Below are positions 1,578-11,600 of a stretch of DNA of 35,730 bases, one piece after another. Made by a program: the position numbers and the translations under genes. Under the pieces are notes generated by a model, which was given only the letters and a program-made list of their open reading frames with translations, searched no databases and was not told the DNA's origin. Positions within the stretch are counted from its first letter, which is position 1. Every line of letters starts with the position of its first letter. The stretch is from the IMG/VR virus record IMGVR_UViG_3300029981_000034, positions 1 through 35,730 of that record; one strand, written 5' to 3'. This DNA is from a virus.

Positions 1578-1604
1578 CCCTCTATTTAGTTAGAGAGGGA
1601 TTTT
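1578..1604 (+). terminator. Hairpin terminator between convergent genes
   Basis: CCCTCT (1578-1583) pairs with AGAGGG (1594-1599) around a 10-base loop, followed by ATTTT on the plus strand. It ends the 41-residue gene. The stop codon of the opposing nuclease-like gene (1582-1584) lies inside the stem. The T run favours plus-strand termination. Confidence 0.55.
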
Positions 1605-2778
1605 GTTGTGCCAAACTACTTAGATTATTTGACAAATAGCCCTCGAGTCTGCTCGTTACCAATTCTTCGGTCAGATTCTCATCGTGATTAAAATAAATAA
1701 GGTCAACACTATTTTCTTTACACAACTTTTTTTTTAATTTATCCCGTTCCTGTGTCTTTTTAAAGGCTTTTTCACCTCCGAAATGTTTAACAGGCTCAAA
1801 GTGTTGCTTTCCCTGATATTCGATTGCTAGATTTAATTCTTGAACATAAATATCTATTCTCAATCGCTCTAGCCATTTAGGTGAATATTCCCTTAGTACC
1901 GTATATTCAGAGAACAACATTACAATTATTTTATACAAAAGAGTTTCGTTAATCCACTTCTCGCCTATTAAGGGGTAGTCTAGATGTTTTCTTATTATAT
2001 TTTCAGCACTTCTAGTAATCGTAGAATATTCGTCTGACCTTTTTTTATTTTCTTCGGAAGTTAATTCACGATTACACAATGGATAACCTTGAAACATTAT
2101 TATTGCTGTCAAATCAATATATCCTCCGTAAAGCTGTGAAAATTTACCACTATATAAATAACCAGTTTCCTTTGGTATTTCTTTTGTACACAAATGACAT
2201 ATATTATCTAGAAATAATGCATTATTACAAATTAAGTGATAGTCCCCCAGCAAACTTCCCATATTGTTATAATTTTTTAAAAGAAGTTTCATTATAGAAT
2301 GAGCTTCTCTCTGACAAGAACACAAATAAAGTTGGCCGCAAATACTACATTGGAACGTAGGGGGTAATTGATATTCGTGTAAAAAATACTTTATATTTTC
2401 TTTTTTACATCCACACTTACATATGTCCCTCTTGGTTGCAATTTTTTTACGGAGTGCCTTTTGCCTTTTTTCACTTTCTGTTATTAATACTGGGTTGCCC
2501 CCAAAAACTTGTATCATTTTGTTATGAGCATCTTCACAACAACAACGAAGAATAAAGCCCCTAACTTTTTGTTGAAGACCACTTGGCAAATATCGAATTA
2601 ATCTAGCGGGCGTTATTTTTTCTTTCAACAAATCAAATAATCCTGACTTGGGAAACAATTCCTTTTCCTTTAATTCTAAATAATCCCAAAAACTAATCAA
2701 TGCACCACAAACAACAAGTACAAAGAACCCAAAGATTAATAATTCCATTGAAATTTTAATAAAGAAAACTAACCCCAT
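1582..2778 (-). CDS. Membrane-anchored zinc-binding protein with PD-(D/E)XK-like nuclease end
   Basis: 398 residues. Residues about 5-32 form one hydrophobic membrane segment. The middle is Cys/His-rich: CKCGC near 120, CSICGQLYLCSC near 145, and later CHLC, consistent with zinc-ribbon or treble-clef folds. The C-terminal 92 residues carry R-I-D309-I-Y and A-I-E320-Y-Q-G-K324-Q-H, then HFGG and an R-D-K-L-K-K segment. That spacing matches restriction-endonuclease-like folds (D, then E-x-Q/G-K). The gene starts 2 bp after the repressor stop, with AAGGA in the repressor tail, so it is probably transcribed with the repressor in lysogens. A role in superinfection exclusion or defence is inferred. 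The nuclease fold is fairly convincing, the function is unknown. Confidence 0.72.
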   Translation of the reverse strand: MGLVFFIKISMELLIFGFFVLVVCGALISFWDYLELKEKELFPKSGLFDLLKEKITPARLIRYLPSGLQQKVRGFILRCCCEDAHNKMIQVFGGNPVLITESEKRQKALRKKIATKRDICKCGCKKENIKYFLHEYQLPPTFQCSICGQLYLCSCQREAHSIMKLLLKNYNNMGSLLGDYHLICNNALFLDNICHLCTKEIPKETGYLYSGKFSQLYGGYIDLTAIIMFQGYPLCNRELTSEENKKRSDEYSTITRSAENIIRKHLDYPLIGEKWINETLLYKIIVMLFSEYTVLREYSPKWLERLRIDIYVQELNLAIEYQGKQHFEPVKHFGGEKAFKKTQERDKLKKKLCKENSVDLIYFNHDENLTEELVTSRLEGYLSNNLSSLAQQNPSLTK

Positions 2779-2780
2779 TG

Positions 2781-3092
2781 TTATTTTTTCCTTCTAACAA
2801 TTCCATCTTCATCCTCAAAATAATCATCCTTGCTTAAAAATTTATCATATATTTTGTCGGACTCTTCTTTGGTAGTAATAAGCATAGAGCCTATGCCTTC
2901 AAGAATATAATTGACGTTTACATTGTATGTAACCAATAGGAAGTGTAAACGTTCCCTACTCAATTTTTTATTATTATTTTCTACATTTCCAATATAAGTG
3001 TCAGAAACACCAAAAAGTGCACCAAATTCTTTTCGACTCATACCATTTAATGCTTTTCTTATTGCTTTTATTCTTTCACCCTCTGACGGCAT
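2781..3092 (-). CDS. XRE-family phage repressor (CI-like, short)
   Basis: A 103-residue protein with an N-terminal Cro/C1 helix-turn-helix (ERIKAIRKALNGMSRKEFGA, then FGVSDTYIGNVENNNKKLSR) followed by LHFLLVTYNVNVNYIL, the usual end of this domain. The tail is short and acidic (DDYFEDEDG). It has no peptidase domain, so RecA-stimulated self-cleavage is unlikely. It is divergent from the Cro-like gene at 3251 and directly upstream of the nuclease-like cargo gene. This is the standard position of a lysogeny repressor. Confidence 0.85.
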   Translation of the reverse strand: MPSEGERIKAIRKALNGMSRKEFGALFGVSDTYIGNVENNNKKLSRERLHFLLVTYNVNVNYILEGIGSMLITTKEESDKIYDKFLSKDDYFEDEDGIVRRKK

Positions 3093-3250: not shown

Positions 3251-3454
3251 ATGATACAAGAAAAAAGAGCAAACTATATTAAGTCTGAAATGGCGTTGGC
3301 TGGTTTAACACAAGCCAAGGCTGCTGAGGAGCTTGGTATTAAACCACAATCAATTTGTTACTGGATTAGTGGTCGTTTTTCTTCAAAGCGTATCGGAGAT
3401 TACTTTGGTGAAAAATTCGGTTCGGCTTTTCTTGAACAAATCGAAATCCACTAA
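3251..3454 (+). CDS. Cro-like helix-turn-helix protein
   Basis: 67 residues: IKSEMALAGLTQAKAAEELG followed by KPQSICYWISG, a compact DNA-binding helix-turn-helix of the Cro or YdaS type. AAAGGAAAA precedes the ATG. It is the first gene of the rightward early operon, divergent from the repressor, the usual position of Cro. It probably shuts off repressor transcription during lytic growth. The role is inferred from fold and position. Confidence 0.8.
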   Translation: MIQEKRANYIKSEMALAGLTQAKAAEELGIKPQSICYWISGRFSSKRIGDYFGEKFGSAFLEQIEIH

Positions 3455-3806: not shown

Positions 3807-3857
3807 ACCTACTGACGAGTCTTTGAAAATTAAGACGAAACCCTAAAGGGTCTAGGT
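3807..3857 (+). ncRNA. Type I hammerhead ribozyme, copy 1
   Basis: All required core positions are present. Stem I is ACCTA (3807-3811) with TAGGT (3853-3857). The core is CTGACGA (3812-3818). Stem II is GTCTT (3819-3823) with AAGAC (3832-3836), closed by an 8-base loop. GAA follows at 3837-3839. Stem III is ACCC (3840-3843) with GGGT (3848-3851), loop TAAA, and the cleavage base is C3852. Predicted self-cleavage is between 3852 and 3853, leaving a 26-nt leader before the ATG at 3879. Stem I is open, hence type I. It starts immediately after the upstream stop codon. Hammerheads are known in other phage genomes. Activity here is predicted, not shown. Confidence 0.9.
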
Positions 3858-3878
3858 AAATAAAAGGAGATACCAAAA

Positions 3879-4022
3879 ATGACAGAGCAAGCAAAAAATT
3901 TCAATCCTGAATGTATGCCGATTTTCGACCAAGAGGGATATTGCTACAACTGTGAACACTGCGAAAACACAAATTGTGAATGTTGGGCAGAATATAACAA
4001 AGATTTAGGCTTAACGGCTTAA
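3879..4022 (+). CDS. 47-residue Cys-rich small protein
   Basis: AAGGAG at 3864-3869 is well placed before the ATG. The protein holds C12 and a dense cluster (CYNCEHCENTNCECW), a pattern that suggests metal binding. It is the first gene downstream of ribozyme 1, so cleavage would give its messenger a defined short 5' leader. Its stop codon is the first base of a predicted pseudoknot RNA. No family is recognised. Confidence 0.6.
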   Translation: MTEQAKNFNPECMPIFDQEGYCYNCEHCENTNCECWAEYNKDLGLTA

Positions 4023-4195
4023 AGGTCAGTTTGCACTCAGCTACCAAGACCTTAAGAAGAAGCTGAGAGCCTTTATGGGCATATACAGACGGTTCAGCAA
4101 CGTTCAAAACCGATAAAAGCGAAGCGACAGCACGGAAAGACGGCATTATGGGGCTAAGAAATCTCCTACGGGAGCTGTGAGAGTCGGCAAAGCCC
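4022..4195 (+). ncRNA. GC-rich structured RNA with H-type pseudoknot (unknown class)
   Basis: By hand count 87 of 180 bases at 4021-4200 are G or C (48%), far above the AT-rich surroundings. AAGGTC (4022-4027) pairs with GACCTT (4048-4053), while GC-A-CTCAGCT (4033-4042) pairs with AGCTGAG-A-GC (4061-4070). The two helices interleave as an H-type pseudoknot. Further helices: CGGTT/AACCG (4090-4094 with 4108-4112), GGGCT/AGCCC (4151-4155 with 4191-4195), and inside the latter CTCC-TACG-GGAG (4163-4174) with a UNCG-type tetraloop. No open frame with a start crosses the region. It matches no RNA class I know. It could be a regulatory RNA, a stop-codon-associated element or an antisense target. 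Confidence 0.6.
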
Positions 4196-4219
4196 ACAAA
4201 CTTTAAAAGGAATACTAAA

Positions 4220-4369
4220 ATGAAAAACCAAGAAAAAGGAAAACCAAATTTTATTTTAACAGTTAGCAAAGAAAAACTAACGCCTGAACAGGATAGAGAG
4301 CTTTTGGCAGAGTTTGTTTTTATGCTGATTAACTGGCAAGAAACAGAAGAAAGGCAAGCAATATGTTGA
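4220..4369 (+). CDS. 49-residue hypothetical protein
   Basis: An early small protein preceded by AAAAGGA. It is charged and probably helical (SKEKLTPEQDRELLAEFVFM). It ends in an ATGTTGA overlap with the next gene, which indicates translational coupling. It lies within the ribozyme-bounded segment. No family is recognised. Confidence 0.6.
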   Translation: MKNQEKGKPNFILTVSKEKLTPEQDRELLAEFVFMLINWQETEERQAIC

Positions 4370-4590
4370 GTAAAAACAGAATAAAAAGTATGAGACGAAT
4401 GAGAGGCGTTAACTACAGATGCCTAAGAAATATGGTAGCTAAATACTACAAAGACTATGCAGATATATATAGCTTTGTTTGTATCCCTGATTTTATGGAT
4501 GCTGATGCCGTTATAAGTGCAAGAGAAATAATTCAATTTAAAAAACAAGCAGGACAACTGGACGAATTATATCAACTAAAAAGAGCATAA
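4363..4590 (+). CDS. 75-residue basic hypothetical protein
   Basis: It starts inside the end of the preceding gene. The N-terminal third is strongly basic (NRIKSMRRMRGVNYRCLRNM), which may mean nucleic-acid binding. The rest looks helical. There is no recognisable family. It lies inside the segment between the two ribozymes. Confidence 0.6.
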   Translation: MLSKNRIKSMRRMRGVNYRCLRNMVAKYYKDYADIYSFVCIPDFMDADAVISAREIIQFKKQAGQLDELYQLKRA

Positions 4591-4604
4591 AGGAAAACTA
4601 AAAA

Positions 4605-4754
4605 ATGAATATGAAAATAGAAAACTTATTACACGTAATTATTGGACTTGCCAACGGGGCAAAAATGAACAATAGAGTAGCACAATTAAATAGCATAATT
4701 GCATTGTGTGAATTAGCACTTGAAAGCTTAGATGAACAAAATATAAAGGAGTAA
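4605..4754 (+). CDS. 49-residue hypothetical protein
   Basis: AAAGGAAAA lies before the ATG. It is a mildly hydrophobic helical protein (ENLLHVIIGLANGAK, then LNSIIALCELALESLDEQN). Its final codons AAG GAG provide the ribosome-binding site for the next gene. No family is recognised. Confidence 0.55.
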   Translation: MNMKIENLLHVIIGLANGAKMNNRVAQLNSIIALCELALESLDEQNIKE

Positions 4755-4758
4755 AACC

Positions 4759-4830
4759 ATGGAAAACGATATTTTAACAGAAGGATTTGAAGTAGACGAA
4801 TTCGATTATGACGAATTTGAAGTTGAATAA
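4759..4830 (+). CDS. 23-residue acidic peptide
   Basis: A very acidic peptide, roughly half Asp and Glu (DEFDYDEFEVE at the end). AAAGGAG is spaced 7 bases from the ATG. It ends GTT GAA TAA exactly where ribozyme 2 begins, mirroring the gene at 3573 and ribozyme 1. It may act as a short DNA mimic, or simply be a translated spacer controlling ribozyme folding. Both ideas are inference. Confidence 0.5.
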   Translation: MENDILTEGFEVDEFDYDEFEVE

Positions 4831-4880
4831 ACCTACTGATGAGCTAGTGAAACTCTAGCGAAACCCTCAAGGGTCTAGGT
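4831..4880 (+). ncRNA. Type I hammerhead ribozyme, copy 2
   Basis: Stem I is ACCTA (4831-4835) with TAGGT (4876-4880), and the core is CTGATGA (4836-4842). Stem II is GCTAG (4843-4847) with CTAGC (4855-4859), loop TGAAACT, then GAA (4860-4862). Stem III is ACCC (4863-4866) with GGGT (4871-4874), loop TCAA, and the cleavage base is C4875. Cleavage is predicted between 4875 and 4876, leaving a 39-nt leader before the Sak4-like gene. Compared with copy 1, all stem II pairs are kept although both strands differ (covariation), while stem I and the flanks GTTGAATAA and AAATAAA are identical. Confidence 0.92.
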
Positions 4881-4914
4881 AAATAAAGCAAATGGTAAGA
4901 AAGGACAATTAATT

Positions 4915-5874
4915 ATGACAATGCAAATTAGAAAAGCAACAAAGGCTCAAAAAAAACTAAGAATGCTTGTGTCAGGACAAACCGCAGCCGGTAAAACTTA
5001 TTCAAGTTTATTAATCTCAAAAGGTTTATCAGAGAATGCGAAAGTTTTAGTATTTGACACGGAATCAGGTAGAGCAAGCTTAAAATCAGACAGATTTAAT
5101 TTTGATGTAGTTGAATGGGATGAACATACACAAGGTCGTTCAGTTTGTTGGAGTGATTACATTGAGGCTATTTATACGGCTGAAAAAAATGGTTATGAAG
5201 TTTTAATACTTGATAGTATAACCGCTGAATGGGAAGAAATAAAAGACAGACACTCAAAAATGCCTGGTAACTCTTTCCAAAATTGGGGAAAAGTTAAGCC
5301 TGACCATAACAAATTTATAAATGCTATTTTGCACAGCAAAATACATATTATTTGCACTGCCCGTTCAAAAATGGAATATGTACTTGAAGAAACTACAAAC
5401 GCACAAGGTAAAAAGGTACAAGCCCCGAAACGAGTTGGATTAGGAGCAGAGCAACAAAACGACTTACCATATTTTATGGATTTTATTTTTAACATTATTG
5501 ATAGAGAACACAATTGTGAAGCTGAAAAAGATGAAACAGAAATTTACCTTAATAAAGGCTATTTCGTAATTAACGAATCTGTTGGCAAAAGAATATCTGA
5601 CTGGTTAAAAGACGGTGTGGAAACATTACCACCAGCACCCTCTGCACAATTAAAAGATGACACCGATATCTACATTGCCCTTGCTGATATTGGAACGGTA
5701 GAGGAGTTAACGGCATTCTGCACAGCAAATAAAGGTAATGTTAATAATATCAAAGATTTTGTTGACGTCTTTAACCTTAGGAAAAAAGCAATTTTGGAGC
5801 AGCAAGAACAAAAAGACTTGCCTCCTGTTACAGATATTGAACAAAAAGCACCCAAGAAAAAGGGGGCTGCGTAA
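4915..5874 (+). CDS. Sak4-like / AAA_24 RecA-fold ATPase (recombination)
   Basis: 319 residues. The Walker A motif is G21-Q-T-A-A-G-K27-T28 and Walker B is V-L-I-L-D100-S. Both fit the RecA-fold phage ATPases (AAA_24, Sak4 group) that promote single-strand annealing together with SSB. The C-terminus is Lys- and Pro-rich and variable. ATG 4915 is used with AAGGA at 4901-4905, though ATG 4921 is also possible. The Gam-like, NinB-like and SSB genes follow, forming a recombination operon. Ribozyme 2 sits directly upstream, so RNA cleavage would separate this operon's messenger from the small early genes. Family is well supported, exact activity inferred. Confidence 0.85.
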   Translation: MTMQIRKATKAQKKLRMLVSGQTAAGKTYSSLLISKGLSENAKVLVFDTESGRASLKSDRFNFDVVEWDEHTQGRSVCWSDYIEAIYTAEKNGYEVLILDSITAEWEEIKDRHSKMPGNSFQNWGKVKPDHNKFINAILHSKIHIICTARSKMEYVLEETTNAQGKKVQAPKRVGLGAEQQNDLPYFMDFIFNIIDREHNCEAEKDETEIYLNKGYFVINESVGKRISDWLKDGVETLPPAPSAQLKDDTDIYIALADIGTVEELTAFCTANKGNVNNIKDFVDVFNLRKKAILEQQEQKDLPPVTDIEQKAPKKKGAA

Positions 5875-6098
5875 TGGAATTTACCAACCAAAATAGAACA
5901 AGGCACTACGGCCTAAGGGTAGGCGATGAAGTTATTGAAGAGGCTTTTGGTATGGAAACAAAAGGAATAGTTGAGAGACTTAGCCATGACAACAATAGAG
6001 CTTGGCTAAAACTTGAAGACGGTAGTACTTACGGTGCCGTATGTGAATGGTGCAAGATAATTACAAAAATAGAAGATAAGGAGAAAAACCATGAATAA
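5874..6098 (+). CDS. 74-residue hypothetical protein
   Basis: Overlaps the previous stop as TAATG, so it is translationally coupled. Its predicted beta-rich middle (GLRVGDEVIEEAFGMETKGIVERLSHD) has the look of a small KOW or SH3-like barrel. It lies between the ATPase and the Gam-like gene in the recombination operon. No family can be named with confidence. Confidence 0.65.
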   Translation: MEFTNQNRTRHYGLRVGDEVIEEAFGMETKGIVERLSHDNNRAWLKLEDGSTYGAVCEWCKIITKIEDKEKNHE

Positions 6099-10288: not shown

Positions 10289-11155
10289 ATGAGTAAATCA
10301 AACATAGAATGGACACAAGAAACTTGGAACCCTATCACTGGGTGTACAAAATATTCAGAAGGTTGTAAAAATTGTTACGCTGAAAAAATGACAAAACGCT
10401 TATGTGCAATGGGTCAAATGAAATATGCGAATGGTTTTAATAATGTTACTTTTCACCCAAGAGAATTAAACAGAAATTTAGCAGTAAAACCCAGTATGAT
10501 TTTTGTTAACTCAATGTCCGATACTTTTCACAAAGATATTACAAATCGTCAAATTACAGATATTTTAAATGTAGCTTGCGATTATAAACAACATATTTTC
10601 CAAATACTTACCAAACGCTCACACCGGATTAATGATTGGAGTTATTATCCAAAAAATGTTTGGCTTGGGGTTACGGTTGAACACGCTGATTATAAATTTA
10701 GAATCAATGACCTAAAGAAAACGGATGCTAAAGTAAAATTCTTATCCTGTGAGCCGTTACTTGGAAATTTAGGCGAACTTAATTTAAACGGAATTGATTG
10801 GGTAATCTGTGGTGGTGAATCCGGTCATAAAGCTCGCCCTATGCACCCTGATTGGGTAGAAAATATCCAAATACAATGCAAAGAGCAGGGTGTTCCATTT
10901 TTCTTTAAACAATGGGGAGAATGGCAAAACGGATCGGATAAAAATAAACCCTCTTTTGCTATTTTTAATAACGGTGATTTTATCCCGTTCACAAAAAAAG
11001 ATACGGAAGCATATCAAAAGAAAATTTACTTATCCGGTGATGATTGGAACAGTTTAAATCCTTATGTTATAGCAAAAACAGGCAAGAAAAAAGCCGGAAG
11101 TTTACTTAATGGAAAACAATACAAAGAATTTCCAAAAGGCGGTACCGGTGAGTAA
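10289..11155 (+). CDS. DUF5131 (phage Gp37/Gp68) family protein
   Basis: 288 residues opening with the family signature NIEWTQETWNPITGCTKYSE and three cysteines, C19, C26 and C29 (GCKNCYAEKM). Other conserved blocks are FVNSMSDTFH, QILTKRSHR, VWLGVTVEH, FLSCEPLLG, WVICGGESG and PFFFKQWGEW. The Cys cluster is compatible with an iron-sulphur or metal site, and radical-SAM-like chemistry has been suggested for the family, but its reaction is not established to my knowledge. It commonly occurs in phage early regions. Here it is coupled to rusA. Confidence 0.9.
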   Translation: MSKSNIEWTQETWNPITGCTKYSEGCKNCYAEKMTKRLCAMGQMKYANGFNNVTFHPRELNRNLAVKPSMIFVNSMSDTFHKDITNRQITDILNVACDYKQHIFQILTKRSHRINDWSYYPKNVWLGVTVEHADYKFRINDLKKTDAKVKFLSCEPLLGNLGELNLNGIDWVICGGESGHKARPMHPDWVENIQIQCKEQGVPFFFKQWGEWQNGSDKNKPSFAIFNNGDFIPFTKKDTEAYQKKIYLSGDDWNSLNPYVIAKTGKKKAGSLLNGKQYKEFPKGGTGE

Positions 11156-11600
11156 ATTAACATTTTCAATAGAAGGCAAAGCAAAAGCAAAACAGAGTAT
11201 GAGACAAGCAAAATGGGGCAACTATATGACCTCTTTAGATGTTGTTGAATATGCTAACTGGGTAAAACTCAACTTTCGAATGGTCTATCCTCAGCATGAT
11301 TGCAAGGTTTTTGAAGATAAACCGCTTCAAATAATCGTAGATGAATACAGAGAAGTACCAAAGACAAAACCGAAATGGTGTAAAGAAAAGAATTATAAAG
11401 CATTCGTGGATAAGGCACTGGCAGATAAAATTAGACCGATTGTAAAGCCTGATACTGATAATATATCTAAGAACATCAAAGACGCTTTAAATAAGCTTGC
11501 ATATCCTGATGACAGTCAAGTTGTAACGGAAGTAATTAGAAAATGGTATGCGAACAAATCAATGGTCAGAGTGAGCATAAGTGAATTGGAACAAGCATGA
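11148..11600 (+). CDS. rusA: RusA-type Holliday junction resolvase
   Basis: 150 residues from GTG 11148, which overlaps the previous stop as GTGAGTAA and has AAGGCGG upstream. A longer ATG frame at 11109 would overlap by 47 bp and adds no conserved sequence. The catalytic pattern is K-P-D102-T-D104-N, K-D112-A-L-N and then P-D121-D122-S-Q-V, as in RusA, which cuts four-way junctions using acidic residues that hold magnesium. It resolves recombination or packaging intermediates. Confidence 0.9.
   Translation: MSKLTFSIEGKAKAKQSMRQAKWGNYMTSLDVVEYANWVKLNFRMVYPQHDCKVFEDKPLQIIVDEYREVPKTKPKWCKEKNYKAFVDKALADKIRPIVKPDTDNISKNIKDALNKLAYPDDSQVVTEVIRKWYANKSMVRVSISELEQA

What the first reader, a model, noticed from the sequence alone, without database searches (positions are those of the whole stretch)
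3807..4880. Two type I hammerhead ribozymes 1 kb apart, with covariation
Seen: both copies have ACCTA/TAGGT stem I, CTGAYGA, GAAA, stem III ACCC/GGGT and a C cleavage base. Stem II is GTCTT/AAGAC in copy 1 and GCTAG/CTAGC in copy 2. Both strands changed while every pair was kept, which is evidence for selection on RNA structure. Known: hammerhead ribozymes cut themselves at this site and occur in some phage genomes. Inference: both are active in the early transcript.
Basis: partly seen in the sequence, partly recalled or inferred. Interest (0 to 1): 0.9.

Follow-up and report, generated by a model that had tools for sequence, protein, structure and literature searches.

The report
Paired hammerhead ribozymes punctuating phage operon
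Two small self-cutting RNA motifs (hammerhead ribozymes) sit exactly between genes in the early region of a phage genome, where they very probably cut one long message into separate mRNAs. This arrangement was already described in prophages, and here it proves to be widespread among uncultured phages.

Summary
Two complete type I hammerhead ribozymes lie at 3807-3857 and 4831-4880 (+), with predicted cuts at 3852/3853 and 4875/4876. A covariance model built only from relatives, without the window copies, finds both at 65 and 62 bits (E about 1e-23 and 1e-22) and nothing else in the window. Rfam misses both at its curated cut-offs. It also misses 62 of 64 descriptor-called copies in 13 phage contigs, so "no Rfam hit" does not refute. 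Covariation across 17 relatives is strong. The kind is known: clustered hammerheads flanking genes in prophages were published in 2011 (PMC3088659), with cleavage shown for three clusters. My scans found 695 similar type I motifs in 446 loci, up to 10 per locus, always on one strand within a locus. They sit at gene boundaries: a stop codon near the 5' end, the Shine-Dalgarno 13-16 nt and the start codon 22-30 nt after the cut. Most likely they cut polycistronic phage mRNA between cistrons; here they would release a 1023-nt piece. No cleavage was tested. One pattern I did not find in the literature searched: copies in one phage share stem I far more often than copies in different phages, even when stems II and III differ.

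The parts
3807..3857 (+). Hammerhead ribozyme copy 1 (HHR1), type I, stem II loop of the UGARAAUU subfamily; predicted cut 3852/3853
   Evidence: sequence; relatives-only CM 65.1 bits; same stem II hairpin in 94 viral contigs
4831..4880 (+). Hammerhead ribozyme copy 2 (HHR2), type I, stem II loop of the UGAAACU subfamily; predicted cut 4875/4876
   Evidence: sequence; relatives-only CM 62.3 bits; stem II hairpin identical in L038
3573..3806 (+). 77-aa ORF whose TAA stop abuts stem I of HHR1
3853..4875 (+). 1023-nt RNA that would be released by both cuts (5'-OH end, 2',3'-cyclic phosphate end): starts UAGGU, ends with the HHR2 ribozyme
   Evidence: coordinates of the two cuts; release itself is inference
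3879..4022 (+). 47-aa Cys-rich ORF, first cistron after cut 1, with AGGAG upstream
   Evidence: no family hit
4220..4369 (+). 49-aa ORF in the released segment
4363..4590 (+). 75-aa ORF in the released segment
   Evidence: no family hit
4605..4754 (+). 49-aa ORF in the released segment
4759..4830 (+). 23-codon acidic ORF whose TAA stop abuts stem I of HHR2; its last 9 nt (GTTGAATAA) equal those of the ORF before HHR1
4915..5874 (+). AAA_24 / Sak4-like recombination ATPase, first long ORF after cut 2
   Evidence: Pfam PF13479 E 7.6e-21; PHROG 124 and 1366

Best explanation
The two motifs are co-transcribed type I hammerhead ribozymes that cut the rightward polycistronic phage mRNA at gene boundaries. 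Each begins right after the stop codon of one ORF and ends a short leader before the next, so cutting leaves coding sequences whole. The upstream mRNA would end in the folded ribozyme with a 2',3'-cyclic phosphate. The downstream mRNA would start with 5'-OH-UAGGU and a short leader. In the window this yields three pieces: up to 3852, 3853-4875 (1023 nt, five short ORFs), and 4876 onward with the Sak4-like ATPase. The likely benefit is independent stability and abundance of the pieces from one promoter. Shown: the motif, its conservation, and its placement. Inferred: expression, cleavage, and the effect on mRNA levels.
For: The core is invariant and both copies match a relatives-only covariance model. 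Covariation: 100% of cells paired, 8 of 14 pairs changed on both sides, score 0.592 against 0.148 shuffled (0/500 reach it). Pattern scans that did not ask for stem I found at least 4 bp of stem I in 92-100% of distinct matches, against 8-47% when flanks were re-paired at random. 88 of 91 distinct occurrences of the exact HHR1 stem II hairpin sit in complete type I hammerheads. Placement: in 281 distinct copies, an ORF of at least 50 codons stops within 12 nt of the stem I start in 76%, against 6% at shifted positions; the Shine-Dalgarno peaks 13-16 nt and the start codon 22-30 nt after the cut. Strand: no locus of 446 carries motifs on both strands. Precedent: three prophage clusters were shown to cut in vitro and one in E. 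coli (PMC3088659).
Against: No RNA or cleavage data for this phage. Stem I is only 5 bp and no tertiary contact was established. In partition-function folds with wide flanks the stem I probability falls to about 0.3 (HHR1) and 0.03-0.1 (HHR2), so folding may have to be co-transcriptional. The 5'-OH stability benefit is untested. A related phage (L037, 72% identical ATPase) has no hammerhead at the same spot, so the element is dispensable in some relatives.
Confidence: 0.8

Rival explanations
1. The cut pieces do not stay linear. Because both copies share stem I, the released 1023-nt RNA can re-pair its 5' UAGGU with the ACCUA of the ribozyme at its own 3' end, giving a panhandle or, after reverse ligation, a circle. 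The outer pieces could likewise be ligated. This adds to, rather than replaces, cutting between cistrons.
For: Stem I and flanks are identical in the window although stem II belongs to two different subfamilies. Within genomes, pairs that differ in both stems II and III share the inner 5 bp of stem I in 77/228 (34%), against 135/5076 (2.7%) between GC-matched genomes; 36 of 66 eligible loci against a null mean of 9.3, max 17. The flank 5' of stem I is barely more similar than background, which argues against plain gene conversion.
Against: Adjacent copies do not share stem I significantly more than non-adjacent ones in loci with three or more copies (p = 0.27). Many arrays carry different stem I sequences. 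Perreault et al. looked for circular and spliced products in prophage clusters and found none. Hammerhead equilibrium usually favours cleavage (general knowledge).
Confidence: 0.12
2. The shared stem I and flanks are only ancestry: copies spread by duplication or gene conversion inside the phage, and stems II and III drifted by compensatory change. No function beyond separate cleavage. This is a rival only to the shared-stem reading and is compatible with the best explanation.
For: Stem II is also shared more within genomes (27% against 14% GC-matched). Downstream leaders are somewhat more alike within genomes.
Against: Stem I is enriched about 9-fold within genomes but stem II only about 2-fold and stem III about 1.2-fold. 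The window copies carry stem II hairpins found separately in unrelated phages.
Confidence: 0.5
3. The motifs are inactive or serve only as mRNA 3'-end structures (a stand-in for a terminator or exonuclease block).
For: The related phage L037 carries a terminator-like hairpin with a T tract just before the same ATPase gene. Stem I is short.
Against: Cores and the C at position 17 are conserved (573 C, 19 A in 592 copies; the scans themselves fixed much of the core), which a mere hairpin would not need. No T tract follows either copy on the + strand.
Confidence: 0.06
4. Chance resemblance.
For: Rfam gathering thresholds are not reached.
Against: E about 1e-22 with an independent model; 0 hits in shuffled sequence.
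Confidence: 0.005

Closest known systems
Clustered hammerhead ribozymes flanking genes in prophages (Perreault et al. 2011, PMC3088659)
   Same: Several hammerheads on one strand flank single genes or short gene blocks in phage DNA; same proposed role of cutting long phage transcripts; cleavage shown for three clusters.
   Different: The passages read name a triple arrangement; here up to 10 in one locus. The stop-ribozyme-Shine-Dalgarno geometry and the shared stem I are not described in the parts I read.
Rfam RF00163 Hammerhead_1 (type I)
   Same: Same topology: stem I open, stems II and III closed, same core.
   Different: Window copies do not reach its cut-off; only 2 of 64 descriptor-called copies in 13 related loci do.
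RAGATH-1 hammerhead (RF03152)
   Same: Type I-like layout with UAC-UGAUGAG core and GUCUA at the cut; a sub-threshold match covers both copies (25.1 and 23.2 bits).
   Different: The RAGATH-1 model has an upstream hairpin, a long stem III and a reduced stem II; gathering score 56.3 not met.
Retrozymes and viroid-like circular RNAs
   Same: Tandem hammerheads bracket a segment of RNA.
   Different: The segment carries phage ORFs, is not repeated, and sits in a phage operon; no circle has been shown.

Membership tests
Type I hammerhead ribozyme | Core CUGANGA ... GAA with A15.1-U16.1 and H at 17 | tested here: met
   Exact in both copies
Type I hammerhead ribozyme | Three helices at the junction, stem I open-ended | tested here: met
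   5/5/4 bp in both copies; MFE fold agrees
Type I hammerhead ribozyme | Compensatory changes in the helices across relatives | tested here: met
   8 of 14 pairs with both-side changes, 0/500 shuffles reach the covariation score
Type I hammerhead ribozyme | Self-cleavage 3' of position 17 | not testable with these tools
   needs transcription in vitro
Type I hammerhead ribozyme | Tertiary contact between loop II and stem I region | tested here: inconclusive
   A at -1 and +1 of stem I and A/U-rich loops II recur, but no contact was derived
Rfam RF00163 as a curated model | Score at or above gathering cut-off | tested here: not met
   No match in the window
RAGATH-1 hammerhead (RF03152) | Score at or above gathering cut-off 56.3 | tested here: not met
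   25.1 and 23.2 bits
Clustered phage/prophage hammerheads (Perreault 2011) | Two or more on one strand bracketing genes in phage DNA | tested here: met
   Both on +, bracketing five short ORFs; portal, terminase, capsid and tape measure genes downstream
Clustered phage/prophage hammerheads (Perreault 2011) | All copies cut in the native polycistronic RNA | not testable with these tools
   shown by the authors for three other clusters only
Retrozyme / viroid-like circular RNA | Circular RNA product | not testable with these tools
   circle-closing stem I (5 bp) is possible by sequence only

The most novel reading that the evidence does not exclude
Within a phage genome the hammerheads carry a common, genome-specific stem I that selection keeps the same while stems II and III diverge. 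The cut ends of all pieces stay interchangeable, so released mRNAs can close on themselves (panhandle or circle) or be re-joined in other orders by the reverse reaction.
Probability: 0.15. Interest if true: 0.75.

Novelty: new member of a known kind. Interest (0 to 1): 0.5.

Why it matters
What phage and bacterial hammerheads are for is called an open question in a review (PMC6155905). Hundreds of phage copies placed precisely between a stop codon and the next Shine-Dalgarno make intercistronic cutting a specific, testable answer. Two Agathobaculum phages with a named host carry a close relative of HHR1, so it could be tested by mapping RNA ends in a culture. The genome-specific stem I asks a new question: whether cut ends are meant to find each other. 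Practically, Rfam's hammerhead models overlook most members of this phage class.

Tried and rejected
Rfam at gathering cut-offs as a yes/no test: rejected as insensitive. A third hammerhead in the window: none; the CTGAGGA...CGAAA matches near 11247-11294 (-) lack the helices. A structured RNA in the ORF-poor stretch 4018-4205: fold z-score only -0.93, no Rfam match, no convincing relatives. Simple recent duplication of one copy from the other: disfavoured, since the stem II hairpins belong to different subfamilies. Adjacency as the driver of shared stem I: not significant. Host assignment: the portal protein is nearest to Brevibacillus phages (38% identity) and one Heliophilum contig (38%), too weak to name a host. 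Strict pattern in bacterial and archaeal genome contigs: no hit, which with one strict pattern does not show absence. Klebsiella phage matches to HHR2 (E = 8): the two regions fetched hold no hammerhead by my descriptor. Literature: I found no paper describing the stop/Shine-Dalgarno geometry or shared stem I, but only the open-access library was searched.

Full report
WHAT IS THERE. The window is a 35,730-base virus record from IMG/VR. At 3807-3857 and 4831-4880 on the + strand it carries two complete type I hammerhead motifs with identical stem I (ACCTA/TAGGT), identical stem III pairs (ACCC/GGGT), consensus cores and a C at the cleavage position. Stem II is GTCTT/AAGAC in copy 1 and GCTAG/CTAGC in copy 2, so four of five pairs differ on both sides and stay paired. 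The predicted cuts are 3852/3853 and 4875/4876, and the piece between them is 1023 nt.

IS IT REAL. A covariance model built from 15 relatives without the window copies finds both at 65.1 and 62.3 bits (E 2.3e-23 and 3e-22; E-values from this tool are rough) and nothing else in the window up to E = 10. On 17 sequences, the two copies included, every cell pairs, 8 of 14 pairs show changes on both sides, and the covariation score is 0.592 against 0.148 in shuffles, reached by 0 of 500. The 17 were picked from hits of a descriptor that requires pairing, so 100% paired cells is partly by construction. An independent check is therefore stronger: in scans that fixed the core and stem III but left stem I free, 92-100% of distinct matches had at least 4 bp of stem I, against 8-47% when the two flanks were taken from different copies. 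A descriptor scan gave 322 hits in 2.19 Mb and none after local shuffling.

WHY RFAM IS SILENT. No Rfam family reaches its gathering score in the window. The best sub-threshold matches are Hammerhead_3 (26.2 bits) and RAGATH-1-hammerhead (25.1 and 23.2 bits). The same models find 0 of 23 descriptor-called copies in 15 loci and 2 of 64 in 13 loci.

RELATIVES. With eight scans of viral contigs (seven of DNA patterns, one of the ATPase protein) the final tally is 695 type I motifs in 446 of 483 loci. 133 loci hold two or more, up to 10 per locus, and no locus has motifs on both strands. The exact stem II hairpin of copy 1, GTCTTTGARAATTAAGAC, occurs in 94 viral contigs, and 88 of 91 distinct copies examined are complete type I hammerheads with freely varying stems I and III. 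It is also found in crAss-like phages: cr272_1 has a type I copy and cr53_1 a type III copy. A human gut phage record (MT836189) has it too, and Agathobaculum phages AB434P2 and AB434P3 have a close variant. The stem II hairpin of copy 2 is identical in a 112-kb phage, L038. So the two copies belong to two stem II subfamilies and are unlikely to be recent duplicates of each other.

PLACEMENT. In the window both copies begin directly after a TAA stop (GTTGAATAA), and the next start codon lies 26 nt (3879) and 39 nt (4915) after the cut. Over 281 distinct copies, an ORF of at least 50 codons stops within 12 nt of the stem I start in 76%, against 6% at shifted positions; the Shine-Dalgarno peaks 13-16 nt and the start codon 22-30 nt after the cut. 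Over 550 copies in non-redundant loci, 381 have the stop between -3 and +12. This is the geometry of an intercistronic element that spares both reading frames. The related contig L037, whose ATPase gene is 72% identical, has no hammerhead there but a terminator-like hairpin just before the same gene, consistent with this being a place where mRNA ends are made.

HOW IT PROBABLY WORKS. Shown: motif, conservation, strand and placement. Inferred: the rightward early transcript is cut as it is made, giving mRNAs with a folded, cyclic-phosphate 3' end and a 5'-OH start a short leader before the next gene. The region fits an early operon: divergent HTH genes at 2781-3092 (-) and 3251-3454 (+), then Sak4-like ATPase, Mu Gam-like, Orf/NinB-like and SSB genes. 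Caveat: with wide flanks the predicted stem I probability is about 0.3 for HHR1 and 0.03-0.1 for HHR2, although the MFE fold with 60-nt flanks keeps both hammerheads. Cutting may depend on folding during transcription.

A NEW PATTERN. Within one phage, pairs of copies that differ in both stems II and III still share the inner five pairs of stem I in 77 of 228 cases, against 135 of 5076 between GC-matched phages. By locus it is 36 of 66, against a null mean of 9.3 and maximum 17. Over all pairs, stem I is enriched about 9-fold within genomes, stem II about 2-fold and stem III about 1.2-fold. A permutation restricted to equal inner three pairs gave 46 of 69 against a mean of 14.3 and maximum 26. 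Flanks upstream of stem I are barely more alike than background. Adjacent copies are not significantly more alike than non-adjacent ones in the same array (p = 0.27), so this looks genome-wide rather than neighbour-specific. Shared ancestry is the simplest account. Interchangeable cut ends (panhandle, circle or exchange ligation) is the interesting one. Limits: loci were chosen by patterns that fix parts of stem III or II (and part of stem I), relatedness was controlled only by removing loci with identical motifs and by GC matching, and 'locus' is often a contig fragment.

KNOWN OR NEW. Perreault et al. 2011 (PMC3088659) already report several hammerheads flanking genes in prophages, propose processing of long phage transcripts, show cleavage for three clusters in vitro and one in E. 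coli, and found no circular or spliced product. This finding is a new member of that kind. Not found in the papers I could search (open-access library only): the arrays of up to 10, the fixed stop-to-Shine-Dalgarno geometry, and the shared stem I.

Noticed in passing
L376 (10 copies in 11 kb), L366 (9), L062, L284, L375 (7 each): Phage contigs with a hammerhead every few hundred bases, all on one strand; far denser than the window.
   Followed up: partly
L043 around 2030-2085; L468 (-) around 2534: Two type III hammerheads carrying the same stem II hairpin as HHR1; L043 is crAss-like phage cr53_1.
   Followed up: partly
window 4022-4219: About 200 nt without a + strand ORF inside the segment between the two ribozymes; weak predicted structure, no relatives found.
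   Followed up: partly
L037 about 5903-5950: Terminator-like hairpin with T tract directly upstream of the homologous ATPase gene, where the window has HHR2.
   Followed up: no
window 4892-4912: Tiny ORF ATGGTAAGAAAGGACAATTAA (6 codons) in the leader between cut 2 and the ATPase start; could be a leader peptide or chance.
   Followed up: no
window 1582-2778 (-): Homing/HNH endonuclease-like gene (PHROG matches) next to the leftward HTH gene.
   Followed up: no
window 10289-11155 (+): DUF5131 protein (Pfam E 3.6e-93) within the phage.
   Followed up: no
flanks of stem I across 284 non-redundant loci: A at the position before stem I in 85% and after it in 90%, with loop II often UNAAU; possibly a tertiary contact.
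   Followed up: partly
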